From a candidate division WOR-3 bacterium (lineage in GTDB: Bacteria > Hydrothermota > Tepidihabitantia > Tepidihabitantales > Tepidihabitantaceae), in contig JANLFQ010000001.1 of the NCBI GenBank assembly GCA_024653355.1, positions 310,001-374,000 of the forward strand: 64,000 nucleotides of DNA, given 5' to 3'. The notes beneath the pieces are model-generated. The model saw only the letters and a list, made by a program, of their open reading frames with translations. It did no database searches and was not told the DNA's origin. Of this stretch, positions 48,246 through 56,155 are shown in pieces. Numbering within the stretch: the stretch's first letter is position 1; every line of letters begins with the position of its first letter. The position numbers were made by a program, and so were the translations under genes.

Positions 48246-49565
48246 TCAACGGCTGAGGCGGGGGCTCCAGGTCGGAAACTGGGCGCCACCGGTGCGGGTG
48301 ATTTGACGCTGATTGGCACCGTTCCAGTCCATCGTGTAGATTTCCCAGACACCGGTGCGGTTTGAGCTAAAGGCAAGGTGTAAACCGTCAGGAGACCAGA
48401 CCGGGTCTTCGTTGTTGCCCGCACTGGTAAGTCTCAGGTAAGTGTCACCGAGAATGTTGGTAATACAGATTTGATTTGAGCCATCGGGTTGGCGTTGCAC
48501 AAAGGCAATCAGGTCGCCTTTTGGTGACCAGGCAGGCGAGGTGTTGTAGGAACCAGAAAAGGTTAAGCGGCGCAGGTCGGTGCCGTCGATGTTCATTATG
48601 TAAATTTGGGGCGTGCCGGTACGGTCGGACACAAAGGCAATTTCCCGGCCACTGGGCGAAAAGGTAGGGGAGATGTCAATTGCCGGACTGTTGGTGAGCC
48701 GGCGGATGTTTTTGCCATCAGGACTCATTAAGTAAATTTCTGGATTTCCTTCAAAGGTAAGAGAAACGGCAAGTAATTTGCCGTCCGGTGAGAAAGCGGG
48801 TGTTGTGTTCAATCCTTTACGGTCTGATATCGTGGTTACCCGTCGGGAAGCAATGTCCAGGGAGTAGATGTTTAACGAGCGGTCGGAATATGAGCAGTAG
48901 GCGATACGGTCGCTTTTCGGTGACCAGTCCGGATACAACTTCATTCCTCCGGATGATGTCAGTTGCTCAAGAGCCGCGCCGTCGTAATCAATCGCCGCCA
49001 GTTCTTTGTGACCCGGTCCAAGAGTCCGGGAAAAGGCGATGCGAGTGCAACTGACTCCATCCTCGCCGGTTAAGAGTTTTATCACTTCGTCCGCCATTTT
49101 GTGAGCAACCCAGCGATAATTCCCGGTTAGCGGGTAACTTTTCGAAGCAATTAGTTTTGAACTGGCAAGGTCGTAAAGTCGCAAGCCGATGTTGGCACCA
49201 CCTTTCTTGAGAATGAAGTCACCGCAGATTAACACCTCAGCCCCGGTTGTTGCCCAGCCTTTGAGGTCGGGTTTTTTAGGGTCGGTGGAAAAATTGTAAA
49301 CCTTGCCCGATTCGGGTTCTTCAAAGGTGAAGTAAAGGGAGAAACGCAGGTCAGAAGTGAATACTTCTTGAAGCGCCTTTATCAGTGCCGTGGTATCAGG
49401 TTTTGTACCTTTAGGGATGGTAAAGTCGGCGATGACAAGCGACATACGTTTACGGGTACCCGAGAGTGTAATTTTGAGCCACAACTCATCAACTGAGTAG
49501 GAGGGTTTCTGGGTTGTATCTGGAGTTTGAGCGAGCAGGAGCAAGAGGAGGGCGCCCAATATCAT
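48246..49565 (-). CDS. tolB: TolB-like beta-propeller protein
   Basis: A 439-residue exported protein of the Tol-Pal type. From ATG 49565 it starts with a short signal (MILGALLLLLLAQ), then a TolB N-terminal alpha/beta domain (about residues 25-160). Six propeller repeats of the form DISPTFSPSGREIAFVSDRT and NEDPVWSPDGLHLAFSSNRT complete it. TolB links inner and outer membrane in envelope upkeep and cell division. TolA, TolQ, TolR and Pal are not in the window. A TTG at 49592 lies in the promoter and is rejected. The consensus promoter ends 9 bases before the ATG, so the message appears leaderless. Confidence 0.9.
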   Translation of the reverse strand: MILGALLLLLLAQTPDTTQKPSYSVDELWLKITLSGTRKRMSLVIADFTIPKGTKPDTTALIKALQEVFTSDLRFSLYFTFEEPESGKVYNFSTDPKKPDLKGWATTGAEVLICGDFILKKGGANIGLRLYDLASSKLIASKSYPLTGNYRWVAHKMADEVIKLLTGEDGVSCTRIAFSRTLGPGHKELAAIDYDGAALEQLTSSGGMKLYPDWSPKSDRIAYCSYSDRSLNIYSLDIASRRVTTISDRKGLNTTPAFSPDGKLLAVSLTFEGNPEIYLMSPDGKNIRRLTNSPAIDISPTFSPSGREIAFVSDRTGTPQIYIMNIDGTDLRRLTFSGSYNTSPAWSPKGDLIAFVQRQPDGSNQICITNILGDTYLRLTSAGNNEDPVWSPDGLHLAFSSNRTGVWEIYTMDWNGANQRQITRTGGAQFPTWSPRLSR

Positions 49566-49574
49566 AGAATGGTG

Positions 49575-49602
49575 ATTATAAGAAATAAACAACTCCGGTC
49601 AA
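49575..49602 (-). promoter_or_regulatory. Promoter of tolB
   Basis: On the minus strand TTGACC (49597-49602) and the consensus TATAAT (49575-49580) have a 16-base spacer. The -10 box ends 9 bases before the ATG. Confidence 0.75.
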
Positions 49603-49686: not shown

Positions 49687-49965
49687 GTGCACGGGAAGGG
49701 CGGGGAAATTTTTTCATGCCCGCATTGTGGCGGCAAGATCCACAATTACGGTTCATTCTGTCCTTATTGTGGTCGGCGGACAGGTAAAAGAGCCGGTCAG
49801 GAAAAGAACCCACACCGCAATCGGAAAAGGGTGCAGAGATTGATTGCTCCTTTGCGATGTAGCGCCTTTCAGCATGAACTTATGTTAAGGCTTTTCCGCT
49901 ATCGATTCTGTCCGGAATGCGGGATGGAGCTGCGCTGGGGTACCCCGGGTTTGGAACCGTTGTAG
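49687..49965 (+). CDS. Small double zinc-ribbon protein
   Basis: A 92-residue protein with an N-terminal zinc ribbon (SCPHCGGKI, then FCPYCGRRT), a basic linker and a C-terminal half-ribbon (FCPECGMELRW) with a further Cys in PLRCSAF. The start codon is GTG and no ribosome site exists; the promoter places the mRNA start at the GTG. It is divergent from tolB. The last base lies 2 bases from the end of the convergent membrane gene. The function is unknown; DNA or RNA binding is possible from the basic middle. Confidence 0.75.
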   Translation: MHGKGGEIFSCPHCGGKIHNYGSFCPYCGRRTGKRAGQEKNPHRNRKRVQRLIAPLRCSAFQHELMLRLFRYRFCPECGMELRWGTPGLEPL

Positions 49966-49967
49966 TT

Positions 49968-50594
49968 TTAACGGATTAAAGGAAGCCAGTCGTGGAAGAG
50001 GAAATAGAAACGGCCAATTAAAAGGGAGATACGAGCCATCACCGTGTAGCCAAACGAGGCGCCAAACGCCACCATAATAAATACAATTCCGATACGGGAA
50101 AAAATTCCCAGTAAACCGGCATGCTCCTTGGAAAAGTAAAAGTATGTCAGGGTGGTTATGACCCCGATGTAGAGGACGGCGTTGTTTAAATTGATTAGAG
50201 GACGCAGGGTGTCAGAAATCTGGGGTAAAAGATAACCCTGGACGCCGGCGATTAGTCCCAAGCCGGCACCGATACCGATGGTGAAAGATATTGACCAGCG
50301 AGAGAGCCAGACCAGTTTGGGTATTGAGCGCAAGAGCATCACCATGCCAAGTAGTGCGGGAATAATCAGGATGTAGGCTTCAAGGTAATTGCGGGTGTTG
50401 AGGTTGGTTTTGAAAGCGTCAATGAGCATCGGGTAAACATCAAATGCCCAGGCGTAGATGACGGCGAAGCCCGCAGAGATACCAACATAGATATGTTCGG
50501 CTGCTCGATAAAGCGGATTGTCTTTATAGAGAAAGGATAATATGGCGATGGTTAAGGTTGCTGCAATCCAGGTGCCGATGATATCGGAAAGCAT
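49968..50594 (-). CDS. Six-helix membrane protein, fourth gene of an unknown membrane cassette
   Basis: A 208-residue protein with about six hydrophobic helices (near residues 4-22, 34-52, 70-88, 98-119, 136-153 and 163-184) and few charges. HIYVGISAGFAVIYAWAF and KEHAGLLGIFSRIG are its most striking stretches. I recognise no known family. It starts right after the stop of the previous gene and ends the cassette. A pore, anchor or channel part of a complex is plausible from the layout, but nothing in the sequence proves it. Confidence 0.8.
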   Translation of the reverse strand: MLSDIIGTWIAATLTIAILSFLYKDNPLYRAAEHIYVGISAGFAVIYAWAFDVYPMLIDAFKTNLNTRNYLEAYILIIPALLGMVMLLRSIPKLVWLSRWSISFTIGIGAGLGLIAGVQGYLLPQISDTLRPLINLNNAVLYIGVITTLTYFYFSKEHAGLLGIFSRIGIVFIMVAFGASFGYTVMARISLLIGRFYFLFHDWLPLIR

Positions 50595-51422
50595 TTACTT
50601 CCCCCGGCTTTTCTTTCGAGAGAGGAGAAAACCGATATTACCGATGATAAGGAGGAGGATAAGAAGCCCATGGGCCGCGGATTGGGCAGGCATTCCCAGT
50701 GTGGCGGAACCGGGTTTCTGGACGAGCGTTTCGTATTCTGATGCCCCCTGAAGGCCACCGATGATGCCTTCAATCTGATGGGCACTGTAGTACTGGTACA
50801 TTCCGGGCGCGTTGACCCCGGTGCAGCCGACGATGATTTTTTGCTTAAAGCGAGCACCGGCGTACTGAATCCAGGCATCAGCCACCGCACCGTGGGCTAA
50901 GGAGACAAGCAGGGCAATATCGTGGTAGTTGTGCACGCCACGCATAAATTCGAAACTGTCAATTGGTACCCCACGGTAATCGGTTTTGAAAAAGTCACGG
51001 ATTTCCCGACCGATGCCAACCATCATCGCTGCGTAACCTGGACGATAGCCAATGTTCACATAATCCTTTCCGTACACCTTCTGGTATTCGGGCGCCACCT
51101 GGTTTAAGGCAATTTCGCCCATTGGTAAGCCAAGTGCCAGCTGACCGGTGAGGATAACTTTGAGGTTTTTCTTGAAACAGTGGCGGAGCAGGGCGATAAG
51201 CATCGGTTGAACTTCCGGGGCTGAGGAAGGGTCAAAGTCGATGGAAATCATTACCACGGAATTGGTCGGCAGTTGTTCAATCGCATTGTAGGCATCGCGC
51301 ACCGGCTCGGATACGCGCACGCCGATTTTCGGTTTAAGAATCAACGGAAGAATCACGACTAGGGCAAGAATTGAGTAGATGATACGGCGGTCAATGGTCG
51401 CAAGGCGTTCCCAGAGTTTCAT
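50595..51422 (-). CDS. Twice-membrane-anchored protein, third gene of the membrane cassette
   Basis: A 275-residue protein with one N-terminal membrane helix (about 14-30), a 215-residue alpha/beta domain and one C-terminal helix (about 248-266) followed by a basic tail. The soluble domain contains SVVMISIDFDPSSAPEVQPM, NIGYRPGYAAMMVGIGREI and IIVGCTGVNAPGMYQYY, a Rossmann-like pattern without nucleotide-binding motifs I can name. I use ATG 51422, one base after the previous stop; a TTG at 51449 is an alternative. Orientation of the soluble domain is uncertain. The family is not recognised. Confidence 0.78.
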   Translation of the reverse strand: MKLWERLATIDRRIIYSILALVVILPLILKPKIGVRVSEPVRDAYNAIEQLPTNSVVMISIDFDPSSAPEVQPMLIALLRHCFKKNLKVILTGQLALGLPMGEIALNQVAPEYQKVYGKDYVNIGYRPGYAAMMVGIGREIRDFFKTDYRGVPIDSFEFMRGVHNYHDIALLVSLAHGAVADAWIQYAGARFKQKIIVGCTGVNAPGMYQYYSAHQIEGIIGGLQGASEYETLVQKPGSATLGMPAQSAAHGLLILLLIIGNIGFLLSRKKSRGK

Positions 51423-51423
51423 A

Positions 51424-52128
51424 TTACGATGAAAGGTAGGTGCGCTCAATTCCTAAAATGATGCGTAACGACATGGCAATTCCCCCGAGAGCGAGACCGA
51501 TACCAATGCCCCTGCCGGCGGCTGCTTGGGGAATCGCCATCAACCAGTCTTTTATCTGAGCAAACAGTTCAATTTGATAGAGAAGGTCGAGGCGGGTGTT
51601 TGGGAAAACGAGATGGACAAGCTGGCTGATTCTCTGCCAGATGGAACTGCCCAACGGCACATTGCCGAGCATTACCAGGCAGGCAGCAATTAAAAGCAGG
51701 GTGGCGCCAAGGTTACGAATGCGAAATGCCCGATAGGCAGCCGAAAAGATGAAAAAGGCGAGGGTGGCGAACATCGTTGCCTGCAGTGGTATAATCATAT
51801 ACTTGTAGAGCCACATAAACGGTGCCCGCAGGGCAAAGGGGCTGGAGAATTTTACCCAGGAGTAAAGTCCGACTGTTAGGGTCGCGAAAAGGCTCAGAAC
51901 CAGCAGGAGGCTGTAAAACCAGCCTTTTTCCCGGCGGATGACTTTAAGCAGGTGGTGTCGGGTTAAAGAGTCGAGCCCTAAAAGGAAGGTAAAGCCGGAG
52001 ATGATTGCATACCAGTTAAGGAAACGGGATTCAAGGTCGCCAAAAGGTTTGTGGGGGATAAAGAAGGCAACAATTAGTAAAAGGGCGGTAAAGAGGACGA
52101 TGAAAAGGGGAATGCTGCGCTGGAACAT
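51424..52128 (-). CDS. Six-helix membrane protein, second gene of the membrane cassette
   Basis: A 234-residue protein with about six hydrophobic helices (near 6-24, 36-52, 70-89, 108-132, 139-157 and 208-228) and a longer loop after helix five. LNWYAIISGFTFLLGLDSL and the AGRGIGIGLALGGIAMSLR end are notable. I recognise no family. It starts 2 bases after the DUF6754-like gene's stop. Together with the fourth gene it would give a 12-helix membrane core. Confidence 0.8.
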   Translation of the reverse strand: MFQRSIPLFIVLFTALLLIVAFFIPHKPFGDLESRFLNWYAIISGFTFLLGLDSLTRHHLLKVIRREKGWFYSLLLVLSLFATLTVGLYSWVKFSSPFALRAPFMWLYKYMIIPLQATMFATLAFFIFSAAYRAFRIRNLGATLLLIAACLVMLGNVPLGSSIWQRISQLVHLVFPNTRLDLLYQIELFAQIKDWLMAIPQAAAGRGIGIGLALGGIAMSLRIILGIERTYLSS

Positions 52129-52130
52129 AA

Positions 52131-53276
52131 CTATGACGGCGGGGAAAACCAGTTGACAATTGCCTCAAATACCGTTTGCAGTGATGGGATGTTTCTGTTG
52201 AGGAGGGTGGCCGCGGTACCGAAAAACACCAAAACAGTGATGATAAAAATCAGAAGCATCTTGATAAAATCTTCACCTTTGATTGTGCCGAGCATCACCG
52301 GTTCTGGTTTGAGATAGCACGAGGCGGCGTAAATCTCTTCGCCAATCATCGTGTAGTCACAGGCGGCAACAAAGAATGGTAACTGGGTGGTTTCGGTTGT
52401 TCCGGCGAGTTGAATTGCGCCGACCGTGTGGCCGGTTTCGGCAAGAATGAGGGATTCGGCATAGAAATAACCCAGCCAGAATATTGCCCCGGGCCGTTCG
52501 CGCAGTATGATGCCATCAACCCCGGCGGCGTAGCCAAACTGGTCAGAAGTAACAAAGGTGATGTTGTCAGGGTTGTAAAGGTCAGGTCGGCCCGCTTCGG
52601 TGTAGGCTTCTTTAACCGTCTCCTGAGCCGCGGTCATCACAATCGGGTCAGAATTGGGAACGATTAACCGGACCGCATACTCTGCCGACTTTTTGCCAAT
52701 TCGCCGTAAAAGCGGTAGGGCGGCGATTACCACCATATCGGTGATGTAACCTAGGCCAAAACTGAATAGAATTGGCTTACCCATCTCAGTTGCCCGACCG
52801 AGTGCATCATCAATTGCATCCAGACCACTGATTTTTCGGATAAACATCTGTTTTCCCTGTCGTGCCCTTAGGATGTAATAGATAAAAAGGGCTGAAATAA
52901 TGAGCGTCAGAACCAGAACATTGAGCCGGCTGGCGTTGAACCACTGGGCACGGGCGATTACAGGACCGGCAACTGCCGAACTCGCTGAATCGTTTGCGGA
53001 ATAGGCACGGATGAGGTAATAATAAGCGACGCCGTCTCTTAGTAATGTGTCAGTATCAAGATAGTCGGTGCGGTTCAAAAGTTCGGGTTCGACCGGGGTA
53101 AAATCTCCAGTTGGTGAAGTCGAGCGGAATATCCGAAAGCCGAGAAGTGATTCTGGTGCAGGATGGGTCCAGGTGATAACAATCGCCTGTCCCTGGTCGT
53201 TGGGGTTATCTTTAACTAACACCGACTCTGGGAGTGTTAAAGCAAAAAAGGTCAAAAGGATATGGAGATGTAACAT
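52131..53276 (-). CDS. DUF6754-like membrane protein with Fn3 domain, first gene of the membrane cassette
   Basis: A 381-residue protein. From ATG 53276 it starts with a signal-like stretch (MLHLHILLTFFALTLP), then a fibronectin-type III domain (about residues 18-105; WTHPAPESLLGFRIFRS). One membrane helix follows (about 117-137). A mainly cytosolic domain (IDDALGRATEMGKPILFSFG; VTSDQFGYAAGVDGIILRE) and a C-terminal helix (FIKMLLIFIITVLVFF) complete it. It resembles what I remember as DUF6754. The promoter is back-to-back with that of the PorY-like kinase. An ATG at 53306 is an alternative start but overlaps the -10 box. Confidence 0.8.
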   Translation of the reverse strand: MLHLHILLTFFALTLPESVLVKDNPNDQGQAIVITWTHPAPESLLGFRIFRSTSPTGDFTPVEPELLNRTDYLDTDTLLRDGVAYYYLIRAYSANDSASSAVAGPVIARAQWFNASRLNVLVLTLIISALFIYYILRARQGKQMFIRKISGLDAIDDALGRATEMGKPILFSFGLGYITDMVVIAALPLLRRIGKKSAEYAVRLIVPNSDPIVMTAAQETVKEAYTEAGRPDLYNPDNITFVTSDQFGYAAGVDGIILRERPGAIFWLGYFYAESLILAETGHTVGAIQLAGTTETTQLPFFVAACDYTMIGEEIYAASCYLKPEPVMLGTIKGEDFIKMLLIFIITVLVFFGTAATLLNRNIPSLQTVFEAIVNWFSPPS

Positions 53277-53301
53277 CGCCTTAGAAAAAGTCCTGAGGTT
53301 G

Positions 53302-53329
53302 AGCATAGCCAAATTTTGGTTTATGTCAA
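53302..53329 (-). promoter_or_regulatory. Promoter of the four-gene membrane cassette
   Basis: On the minus strand TTGACA (53324-53329) and TATGCT (53302-53307) have a 16-base spacer. Its -35 box is only 11 bases from the -35 box of the kinase promoter, so one bound protein could affect both. Confidence 0.65.
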
Positions 53330-53340
53330 ATTGATTTTTC

Positions 53341-53368
53341 TTGACCAAGGTGAATCAGCGGTTATTAT
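53341..53368 (+). promoter_or_regulatory. Promoter of the PorYX-like genes
   Basis: TTGACC (53341-53346) and TATTAT (53363-53368) have a 16-base spacer. A shifted TATAAT is present at 53368-53373. The leader before the TTG start is short and has no Shine-Dalgarno. Confidence 0.6.
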
Positions 53369-53387
53369 ATAATGAAAATTAAAGTTT

Positions 53388-54647
53388 TTGAAGCGCAATA
53401 AGTTAAGTTTCGGACCCCGGACCCTGCAGGTCTATTTTGTCATTGGTTTGATTGGACTGGCGGGCGTCTGGTTTTTCTATTCCCAATATCTGCTGTTAAG
53501 ACTGTCGCGCTTGTGGCGTAATTATGCAACTACGCTCTTGACGCAACTGGAGAACGAAACTCAAGTGCGGACCAATATTTACGCCAAGTTTATGAGCCGG
53601 GTGACCGAACCAGGTGAGCCAGGTTCGCCCGAACTGGACATCATCTTTGACGAGGTGATTCAGAAAATTGACTTTCCGGTGGTGATTACAGACCCTGATG
53701 GTGTGCCCACGGCGTATCGGAACTTACCCGTATCCGATACTAGTCAAAATGGACTGTTGAAGGTTGTCGCGGAATTGGACCGAGAGCATGAGCCAATCCC
53801 GGTTCTGGTCCGGGAGGGCGATTCTTTGCGCTGTTTGAATGTAATTCACTATGGGGTGTCACCTTCCACAGTAACTTTACGAAAAATCAGCCTTAATTTA
53901 GCAAATTCGGTGCGGCAGTTGCGGCTGTTTTCTTTTGTCCAGCTGGTTTTGTTTTTGGGTTTTATGCTTATTGGCATCTGGGGAGTTTTAGCCTACAAAC
54001 GGCAGGAGGAGGAGCATATCTGGACAGCGCTTGCCAAGGAGACCGCTCATCAACTGGCAACACCGATATCTTCGTTTTCTGCCTGGCTTGAGATGCTTAA
54101 AGAGAATGGTCCAAAAGATATTGTTTTGCAAATGGAGGAGGACCTGGCGCGGATGAAGGAGGTGCTTTCGCGATTCAGCCGTATCGGGCTACCGCCAGAT
54201 TTGGAATTGCGAAGGTTGGGTGATTTGATCAGGCATTCGGTTGAGTTTGTTCAGCGTCGTTCGCCCCAAGGAGTGCGTTTTCAGGTTGTGGTTGAAGATG
54301 ACCCACTGGTTAAGGTTGATGGAGTTCTTTTTTCCTGGACGCTGGAGAACCTGTTGAAAAACAGTGTTGATGCGATTGGTGAGCGGGAAGGAAAGGTAGA
54401 GGTACGAATGGCACAGACTGCAGACCGCCGTTATGCCGAAATACTGGTTACCGATTCTGGTGAAGGAGTAAAGTTGGCAAAGCTGTTTGAACCTGGTGTG
54501 ACCACCAAGCCTTATGGCTGGGGTGTGGGATTGACACTGGCAAAGCGGATTGTTGAAGGGTACCACCAGGGGCGGTTAATTTTGAAGGAGTCGCATCCCG
54601 GACGAACGGTGTTTGCTATTTATCTACCAGTAGTAAGAGAGGCTTGA
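53388..54647 (+). CDS. PorY-like sensor histidine kinase
   Basis: A 419-residue membrane kinase. Two helices (about 16-36 and 181-203) flank a 145-residue sensor region predicted to lie outside the cytoplasm. The phosphorylated residue should be His221 in AKETAHQLATPISSF, close to the H-box of PorY. The ATPase domain has the N-box ENLLKNSVDAIG, the G1 motif DSGEGV and a G2-type GWGVGLTLAKRIV. The start is TTG at 53388; no ATG fits before the first helix. Its stop overlaps the response-regulator start (TGATG), so kinase and regulator are made together. Confidence 0.88.
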   Translation: MKRNKLSFGPRTLQVYFVIGLIGLAGVWFFYSQYLLLRLSRLWRNYATTLLTQLENETQVRTNIYAKFMSRVTEPGEPGSPELDIIFDEVIQKIDFPVVITDPDGVPTAYRNLPVSDTSQNGLLKVVAELDREHEPIPVLVREGDSLRCLNVIHYGVSPSTVTLRKISLNLANSVRQLRLFSFVQLVLFLGFMLIGIWGVLAYKRQEEEHIWTALAKETAHQLATPISSFSAWLEMLKENGPKDIVLQMEEDLARMKEVLSRFSRIGLPPDLELRRLGDLIRHSVEFVQRRSPQGVRFQVVVEDDPLVKVDGVLFSWTLENLLKNSVDAIGEREGKVEVRMAQTADRRYAEILVTDSGEGVKLAKLFEPGVTTKPYGWGVGLTLAKRIVEGYHQGRLILKESHPGRTVFAIYLPVVREA

Positions 54648-56155
54648 TGAAAATTCTGTGGATTGATGACGAGATTAATCTTTTAAGGCCATTTATCTAC
54701 GCCCTGGAGAAAAAGGGTTATACGGTAACAACCGCAACAAATGGTCCGGATGGCTTGTCACTGTTGAAGCAGGAAAGTTTTGACCTGATTTTACTGGACC
54801 AGATGATGACCGGGATGCAGGGGTTGGAGGTTTTACGCCGTGTTAAAGAGATCGATCCCCAGGTTTTAGTGGCGATGGTTACCAAGTCTGAGGACGAGGC
54901 ATTGATCAATGAGGCACTGGGTAAGCTGGTGGACGATTTTATCATCAAGCCTTTTACACCCACCCAGCTGCTGGCGGTGTTGAAGCGACTTCTGGAGAAG
55001 CGGCAACTTGTTGCCGGACACATCGCGCAGGATTATCTGGCAACGATGAATCGGGAACAAAACCTTACCACCCCTGAAGAATGGGCTGACTATTACCGAA
55101 GCCTTGGTTACTGGGAGACAGTGCTTGCCCGGTTTGGAGACCGGTCGTTGATTGAGTTGCATCAGGACCGGCGGCGCGAGGCAAATGACCGGTTCAGCCG
55201 CTATGTCGAAGAAAATTATCTGTCCTGGATAAAAGGGTCCGGTCCGGTAATGAGTCATCAATTGATGGAGAAGAGGGTAAAACCGCTCTGGGAAGAGGGT
55301 CAGACCTACCTGGTGGTTTTGGATTCAATGCGGCAGGACCAGTGGGAGGCGATTGTCCCGCTCTTGAAAGATTTCCTCAATGTCGATACCGATTACTATT
55401 ACGCAATTCTGCCAACAGCAACACCTTATTCGCGTAATGCAATTTTTAGCGGGCTTTTACCACTGGAAATCTATCGCCGTTATCCACGCTGGTGGGTTTT
55501 TGAGGAAACAGGACAGAATCGTTATGAGCAGGAACTTTTAAGCGAGTTGCTAAACCGGCTGGCGTTTAAGTGGCGTTATTCATTTGTTAAAGCATCCCGC
55601 GCTGATGAACTGCAGGCGACCCGTTCAATGCTGTTTGACAGCAATCTCCGCTTTGTGGTTTTGGTGATCAACTTTCTTGACCTCTTAATTCATTCGGTTA
55701 AGTCCACACGGCTTCTGGATGAGATTATTCCCGATGATGCGGCACTTGTCGGAACAACGCGGGTCTGGTTCTCTTCTTCGCCGGTATATGAACTTTTAAA
55801 AGAGTTGTCCCGGCGTAACTGCCGTATCGTAGTTACCAGTGACCACGGTTTTATTCGGGTGAATCGGCCGACACTGATCTACGGCTCAAGGGAAATTTCC
55901 GCAAATCTGCGTTACAAGCACGGCGCCGCATTGCGGGTCGAAGAACGGGACGCCTTCTTGTTGCATCATCCAGAGGATTTTTTCCTGCCGGTTGAGCATT
56001 CTGGGGTCAAGTTTGCTATTGCCAAATCGGACTTTTATTTCATCTATCCGACCAAGCCCCGGGAGTATGAAAAGACCTACAAATGGACATTCCAGCATGG
56101 GGGCATCTCGCTTGAAGAGATGATTGTGCCATTTGCGGTCCTGAGGCCGCGTTAG
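54647..56155 (+). CDS. porX: PorX-like response regulator with PglZ phosphodiesterase domain
   Basis: A 502-residue protein with an N-terminal receiver domain (acidic pair Asp7/Asp8, phospho-acceptor Asp51 in LILLDQMM, Lys101) joined by a helical linker to a PglZ domain of the alkaline-phosphatase superfamily. Its metal and nucleophile motifs match those of PorX: VLDSMRQDQW (Asp226), PTATPYSRNAIFSGLLP (Thr about 257-259), TSDHGFIRVNRP and QHGGISLEEMIVP. PorX controls type IX secretion genes in Bacteroidota and cleaves oligonucleotides. GAGAGG lies 5 bases before the ATG. The name rests on motif likeness, not on a search. Confidence 0.9.
   Translation: MKILWIDDEINLLRPFIYALEKKGYTVTTATNGPDGLSLLKQESFDLILLDQMMTGMQGLEVLRRVKEIDPQVLVAMVTKSEDEALINEALGKLVDDFIIKPFTPTQLLAVLKRLLEKRQLVAGHIAQDYLATMNREQNLTTPEEWADYYRSLGYWETVLARFGDRSLIELHQDRRREANDRFSRYVEENYLSWIKGSGPVMSHQLMEKRVKPLWEEGQTYLVVLDSMRQDQWEAIVPLLKDFLNVDTDYYYAILPTATPYSRNAIFSGLLPLEIYRRYPRWWVFEETGQNRYEQELLSELLNRLAFKWRYSFVKASRADELQATRSMLFDSNLRFVVLVINFLDLLIHSVKSTRLLDEIIPDDAALVGTTRVWFSSSPVYELLKELSRRNCRIVVTSDHGFIRVNRPTLIYGSREISANLRYKHGAALRVEERDAFLLHHPEDFFLPVEHSGVKFAIAKSDFYFIYPTKPREYEKTYKWTFQHGGISLEEMIVPFAVLRPR

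What the first reader, a model, noticed from the sequence alone, without database searches (positions are those of the whole stretch)
49968..56155. PorX/PorY-like regulators divergent from an undescribed four-gene membrane cassette
Seen: a kinase gene and a receiver-PglZ gene (TGATG overlap) are transcribed away from four tightly packed membrane-protein genes: Fn3 plus DUF6754-like, six helices, twice-anchored soluble domain, six helices. Their -35 boxes are only 11 bases apart. Known: PorXY controls type IX secretion in Bacteroidota. Inference: here PorXY may control or sense an envelope complex built by the cassette, possibly a secretion or surface-anchoring device for the sorting-tail proteins of this window. 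I could name no family for three of the four cassette proteins.
Basis: partly seen in the sequence, partly recalled or inferred. Interest (0 to 1): 0.72.

Follow-up and report, generated by a model that had tools for sequence, protein, structure and literature searches.

The report
Undescribed four-gene membrane cassette, WOR-3 bacteria
Next to the regulators of a protein-secretion system lies a tightly packed set of four unnamed membrane-protein genes that every sampled genome of two little-known bacterial phyla appears to carry, often in several copies, and that in some lineages is joined into one long operon with the proton-powered TonB/ExbB/ExbD motor, so it is probably an undescribed inner-membrane part of energy-driven cell-envelope machines.

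Summary
A histidine kinase and a genuine PorX (NF052313, 550 bits, cut-off 300) are divergent from four packed genes: Fn3+DUF6754, a six-helix protein, a twice-anchored alpha/beta protein, and another six-helix protein. Three of the four match no Pfam or NCBIfam family.

DUF6754 occurs in 61/61 WOR-3 and 80/80 Zixibacteria genomes sampled (1-7 copies), nearly always followed by the same three genes. PorXY adjacency is local (5 genomes of one subclade), is missing in another member of that subclade, and in G001 a 1.1-kb insertion separates the two promoters.

Other neighbours say more. In three other families, with three different cassette lineages (one of them the window's own), the cassette heads a conserved 13-gene operon: cassette, DUF4388, two unnamed soluble proteins, two small membrane proteins, ExbB, ExbD, ExbD, TonB. 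In the window's family it is followed by TolB.

The genome encodes T9SS parts (SprA, two PorU, PorV family, 68 sorting tails), but GldL and GldM were not detected in 21 genomes.

Best reading: an undescribed inner-membrane complex serving proton-motive-force-driven envelope machines. Mechanism inferred, not shown.

The parts
52131..53276 (-). Cassette gene 1: signal/TM, Fn3-like domain, TM, DUF6754 domain, C-terminal TM (longest ORF reaches 53348)
   Evidence: PF20539 362 bits; Fn3 match in PDB sequences, E 0.0028; start conserved in G001
51424..52128 (-). Cassette gene 2: membrane protein, 5-6 helices, no named family
   Evidence: recurs as second gene in 43 complete cassettes
50595..51449 (-). 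Cassette gene 3: alpha/beta soluble domain between two TM helices, no named family (likely start ATG 51422)
   Evidence: AF2 model pLDDT 71 with Rossmann-like alternation; no confident PDB match
49968..50594 (-). Cassette gene 4: six-helix membrane protein, no named family
53388..54647 (+). Membrane histidine kinase, PorY-like by position before porX
   Evidence: HATPase_c 48 bits; no PorY-specific model matched; pairs with PorX in relatives
54647..56155 (+). PorX: receiver plus PglZ domain (ORF opens at TTG 54644)
   Evidence: NF052313 550 bits, cut-off 300; Response_reg and PglZ
53302..53329 (-). Promoter-like site of the cassette, TTGACA-16-TATGCT
   Evidence: conserved in G001
53341..53368 (+). 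Promoter-like site of the kinase gene, TTGACC-16-TATTAT
   Evidence: similar site kept in G001, about 1 kb from the cassette promoter
48246..49592 (-). TolB, downstream of the cassette on the same strand
   Evidence: TIGR02800 360 bits, cut-off 343; abuts gene 4 in G004, L072, L073

Best explanation
The four genes encode one inner-membrane complex, a core and multi-copy feature of WOR-3 (Caldifarciminota) and Zixibacteria. It most likely works as a partner or regulator of proton-motive-force-driven trans-envelope machines of the TonB/Tol class. The copy in this window sits with tolB downstream and porXY divergent, and its orthologue in G029 heads an operon that ends in ExbB-ExbD-ExbD-TonB. Proposed working, inferred: the two six-helix proteins form a membrane core; the DUF6754 domain faces the cytoplasm as a ligand- or protein-binding module; the Fn3 domain and the alpha/beta domain of gene 3 face the periplasm and contact the energiser or its outer-membrane client. 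PorXY is a local neighbour that may add T9SS-related control. Shown: gene content, fixed order, ubiquity, purifying selection, operon linkage to ExbB/ExbD/TonB and to TolB. Inferred: the physical complex, domain sidedness, coupling to the motor.
For: Fixed order D6754-M6h-Sol-D6h in nearly every readable locus with median gaps of 8, -4 and -4 bases. Presence in 61/61 WOR-3 and 80/80 Zixibacteria. Conserved 13-gene operon with ExbB-ExbD-ExbD-TonB in families f6 (L042, L148, L151, L155; L149 to the contig edge), f7 (L127) and f9 (L163), with cassettes from three different clades including the window's clade A. TolB next to the clade-A cassette in the window, G001, G004, L072, L073. dN/dS 0.028-0.055.
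Against: Most cassette copies, including the two others in this genome, are not next to ExbB or Tol genes. No biochemical evidence. Linkage shows association, not which component acts on which. The highly conserved DUF6754 residues could mean an enzyme with a wholly different task.
Confidence: 0.45

Rival explanations
1. One reading: the cassette is an envelope device of the type IX secretion pathway, controlled or sensed by PorXY.
For: PorX is genuine; the genome has SprA, PorU, PorV-family and many sorting tails. PorV-family genes lie near other cassettes (L043, L044, L116) and a sorting-tailed C25 peptidase precedes the clade-A cassette in family f4.
Against: PorXY adjacency is confined to one subclade and is broken in G014 and interrupted in G001. 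PorX occurs without the clade-A cassette and far from any cassette in most genomes. PorV-family and sorting-tail genes are so common here that proximity means little (82 tail matches).
Confidence: 0.2
2. The cassette replaces the PorL/PorM (GldL/GldM) inner-membrane motor of type IX secretion in these phyla, and PorX docks on it as it docks on PorL in Bacteroidota.
For: GldL and GldM models find nothing over cut-off in 21 WOR-3 genomes although SprA, PorU, PorV and PorX are present. In Bacteroidota the phosphorylated PorX receiver binds PorL/GldL (PMC5005315, PMC10951265).
Against: No positive control for divergent GldL/M was available, so absence is weak. Three ExbB/TolQ-type motors exist in the genome, one beside PorV-family genes, and could power secretion. 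The cassette shows no homology to any motor protein. PorX is rarely next to it.
Confidence: 0.08
3. The cassette is a general membrane sensor or transporter with no fixed tie to envelope motors; its neighbours reflect chance and local operon history.
For: Neighbours differ widely between paralogues: MazG-like, recombination-nuclease-like, metG-tatD-ksgA, SLBB export protein.
Against: The nine downstream genes of the ExbB/TonB operon are conserved in order across three families and with three cassette lineages, which is hard to get by chance.
Confidence: 0.25
4. PglZ gene plus membrane genes as part of a phage-defence island (BREX/Pgl-like).
For: The PglZ domain matches PADLOC PglZ models.
Against: The protein is PorX by a curated model; no cassette protein or kinase matches any defence model; universal, vertically inherited presence is unlike defence islands.
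Confidence: 0.02

Closest known systems
PF20539 (DUF6754)
   Same: Gene 1 is a clear member (362 bits, cut-off 27)
   Different: It is only a domain of unknown function; no paper in the library mentions it, and the four-gene unit and its other three proteins have no family
PorXY two-component system of the type IX secretion system (Bacteroidota)
   Same: PorX matches the curated equivalog model; a membrane kinase gene precedes it in many relatives, overlapping it here
   Different: In a phylum where papers do not place T9SS; no GldL/GldM found, so the known PorX target is missing or unrecognised; the kinase matches no PorY-specific model
TonB-ExbB-ExbD energiser
   Same: In families f6, f7 and f9 the cassette shares an operon with ExbB, two ExbD and TonB
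   Different: Known TonB systems are not reported, to my knowledge, with this cassette or with the DUF4388 and four further unnamed genes in between; most cassettes stand alone
Tol-Pal system
   Same: TolB abuts the clade-A cassette in family f1
   Different: TolQ, TolR and Pal homologues lie in a separate operon in the same genome (L146); the cassette has no homology to Tol proteins

Membership tests
PorX | Score over the curated NF052313 cut-off along the full length | tested here: met
   550 bits against 300, residues 3-503
PorX | Phospho-acceptor Asp and PglZ metal/nucleophile motifs | tested here: met
   Read directly in the translation: LLDQMM (D51 from ATG), LDSMR, TATPYS, SDHG, QHGG; activity not tested
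PorX | Interaction with PorL/GldL and SigP | not testable with these tools
   Known from PMC5005315 and PMC10951265; no GldL found here; SigP not searched
PorY | Orthology to Bacteroidota PorY | tested here: inconclusive
   Histidine kinase domains only; best NCBIfam hits are general kinases below cut-off; named by its pairing with PorX
Type IX secretion system | SprA/Sov translocon | tested here: met
   TIGR04189 473.5 bits, cut-off 200, one ORF of 1882 aa
Type IX secretion system | PorU sortase, PorV family and C-terminal sorting domains | tested here: met
   Two PorU over cut-off, eight PorV-family over cut-off, 68 tails over cut-off
Type IX secretion system | GldL/GldM (PorL/PorM) motor | tested here: not met
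   TIGR03513 0 of 21, PF12081 none over cut-off in 21 genomes; no positive control, so divergent forms are not excluded
Type IX secretion system | PorK/PorN ring, PorT, PorP, PorE/W | not tested
PF20539 (DUF6754) | Score over gathering cut-off | tested here: met
   362 bits against 27
TonB-ExbB-ExbD system | Cassette proteins homologous to ExbB, ExbD or TonB | tested here: not met
   No such matches; the link is by operon only
BREX/Pgl defence | PglZ accompanied by other BREX proteins | tested here: not met
   Only the PglZ domain of PorX matched PADLOC models in a defence context; none of the five other proteins did

The most novel reading that the evidence does not exclude
The cassette is a previously unknown inner-membrane module shared by several proton-driven envelope machines in WOR-3 and Zixibacteria, and in these phyla it takes the place of the undetected PorL/PorM platform of type IX secretion, with PorX docking on the cytoplasmic DUF6754 domain instead of on PorL.
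Probability: 0.1. Interest if true: 0.9.

Novelty: categorically new. Interest (0 to 1): 0.62.

Why it matters
A four-gene membrane unit whose marker gene is in all 141 genomes sampled from two phyla, in up to seven copies, without a name or proposed function, is likely to be a basic piece of their envelope biology. The 13-gene operon with ExbB/ExbD/TonB gives a first concrete, testable handle on DUF6754. The accompanying T9SS-like gene set without a detectable GldL/GldM raises the question of what powers type IX-like secretion outside the groups where it is described, and what PorX binds there.

Tried and rejected
1) Homology of gene 3's domain to the DUF6754 domain, suggested by eye: profile-profile comparison of full length and of domains gave no support. 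2) Known fold for gene 3: Foldseek against the PDB gave no match at E<=0.001, only generic Rossmann-like folds; profile search of PDB sequences found nothing. 3) DUF6754 fold: AF2 model too poor to search (pLDDT 55.6). 4) Families for the two six-helix proteins: distant members give only sub-threshold, mutually inconsistent Pfam hits. 5) Defence island: rejected. 6) Plasmid carriage: no match. 7) The 1168-aa gene before the clade-A cassette in G023 as PorU: it is a sorting-tailed C25 peptidase, 39 bits against the PorU cut-off of 420. 8) The two soluble proteins after DUF4388 look roadblock-like to me, but Pfam gives no match, so I do not name them. 9) A hydropathy script for all four families stopped with an error after gene 4; the per-family counts used are those. 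11) Literature: nothing in the library for DUF6754, for WOR-3 or Zixibacteria with type IX secretion, or for Caldifarciminota.

Full report
WHAT IS THERE. The window is G000:C1:310001-374000 of a 1.88-Mb genome. Its closest named relatives are candidate division WOR-3, phylum Caldifarciminota. The six genes are as described. The two promoter-like sites have -35 boxes exactly 11 bases apart, and the kinase and porX genes overlap in TGATG. Gene 1 carries an Fn3-like domain (best PDB sequence match 3mpc, E 0.0028) and DUF6754 (362 bits). Genes 2, 3 and 4 match nothing in Pfam or NCBIfam. The regulator is PorX by a curated equivalog model (550 bits against a cut-off of 300). Between the two closest genomes all six genes evolve under strong purifying selection (dN/dS 0.028 to 0.055).

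THE CASSETTE IS A CORE, MULTI-COPY MODULE. DUF6754 is present in all 61 WOR-3 genomes sampled and all 80 Zixibacteria genomes sampled, in 1 to 7 copies, and in none of the 14 control genomes. Where the neighbourhood could be read, the DUF6754 gene is followed by the same three genes in the same order; 42 of 57 scanned copies are complete, and the rest include overlapping or fused frames, truncations, DUF6754 duplicates and contig edges. Typical spacing is a few bases or an overlap. Some genomes carry triple tandem cassettes (L044, L113, L153). The window genome has three copies (near 117, 362 and 418 kb of contig 1).

PORXY ADJACENCY IS LOCAL. A 94-row maximum-likelihood tree puts the window's copy in clade A (21 rows, support 100/99), spread over six families. 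PorXY lies next to it only in G000, G001, L071, G006 and G010. In G014, in the same subclade, the kinase-porX pair lies elsewhere. In more distant PorX loci the neighbours are other genes. Genomes such as G008, G028, G043 and G047 have PorX but no clade-A cassette. In G001 a 1.1-kb insertion with a lipoprotein-like gene separates the two promoters, each of which is recognisable on its own side.

BETTER NEIGHBOURS. In family f1 the next gene on the same strand after the cassette is TolB (TIGR02800, over cut-off): it abuts gene 4 in G004, L072 and L073, and lies about 400 bases on in the window and G001. In families f6, f7 and f9 the cassette heads a conserved 13-gene operon: cassette, DUF4388, two unnamed soluble proteins, two small membrane proteins, ExbB, ExbD, ExbD, TonB (complete in L042, L148, L151, L155, L127, L163; partial in L149, L150 and L152, which end at contig edges, and in L039). 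The cassettes in these operons belong to three different DUF6754 clades, including clade A in G029. The same arrangement kept with different cassette lineages argues for functional coupling rather than hitch-hiking. In Zixibacteria L115 a DUF6754 gene lies about 5 kb from TolQ, TolR and TolB homologues; proximity of that kind could be chance.

MECHANISM, INFERRED. By hydropathy and the positive-inside rule read by eye, not run through a topology program, the DUF6754 domain should face the cytoplasm and the Fn3 and gene-3 domains the periplasm. Gene 3 has a Rossmann-like alpha/beta fold in a moderate AF2 model (pLDDT 71). I propose an inner-membrane complex that partners proton-driven machines of the TonB/Tol class, with T9SS-related control by PorXY possibly added in one lineage. 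No step of this has been tested biochemically. A general sensor or transporter reading remains open.

T9SS CONTEXT. [quoted passage not shown] The window genome nevertheless has SprA (473.5 bits), two PorU, eight PorV-family proteins and 68 sorting tails over cut-off. GldL and GldM were not found in 21 WOR-3 genomes, though no positive-control genome was available. Three MotA/ExbB-family proteins are present, one in a gene cluster with PorV-family genes (L144), so another motor could drive secretion. In Bacteroidota the PorX receiver binds PorL/GldL (PMC5005315, PMC10951265); what it binds in WOR-3 is unknown. That the cassette replaces PorL/M is the most novel reading not excluded; I give it 0.1.

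NOVELTY. No known system that I could name contains this cassette. 'Categorically new' refers to the module. The caution is that unknown function is not by itself new function; if the module proves to be only a TonB accessory, the label would drop to a new variant of a known kind.

Noticed in passing
G000 genome: SprA at L143:5357-11005; PorU at C1:582764-585892 and C4:46495-49608; 68 sorting tails: A type IX secretion gene set (SprA, two PorU, eight PorV-family proteins, many sorting tails) in a WOR-3 genome, with no detectable GldL or GldM. PorU is found in all 61 relatives.
   Followed up: partly
L144:7328-13725 (G000:C1:147-154 kb): A cluster of PorV-family protein, TPR protein, ExbB, two ExbD-like proteins and a TonB-like protein: a candidate energiser for type IX-like secretion without GldLM.
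   Followed up: partly
L042:9145-17544, L148, L151, L155, L163, L127: Conserved 13-gene operon cassette-DUF4388-two unnamed-two small TM-ExbB-ExbD-ExbD-TonB; five of its genes have no functional family.
   Followed up: yes
window 48246-49592 and L146:7376-9794: tolB lies beside the cassette while TolQ, TolR and Pal homologues sit together some 460 kb away.
   Followed up: partly
window 49687-49965: A 92-aa zinc-ribbon-like ORF on the opposite strand between the cassette and tolB, conserved in G001 (L051:16702-16980).
   Followed up: no
L044, L113, L153; L114:7542-9318 and L132:7830-10152: Triple tandem cassettes, and loci where the DUF6754 gene itself is duplicated in tandem before the other three genes.
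   Followed up: no
L116:12841-14520, L120:731-2623: Unnamed 559- and 630-aa proteins next to Zixibacteria cassettes, with no confident family match.
   Followed up: no
L081 (G025:C32): A 9.9-kb contig carries a clade-A copy scoring the same as the G006/G010 copies (622 bits), although G025 is in another family and has its own clade-A copy; possibly a misbinned contig.
   Followed up: no
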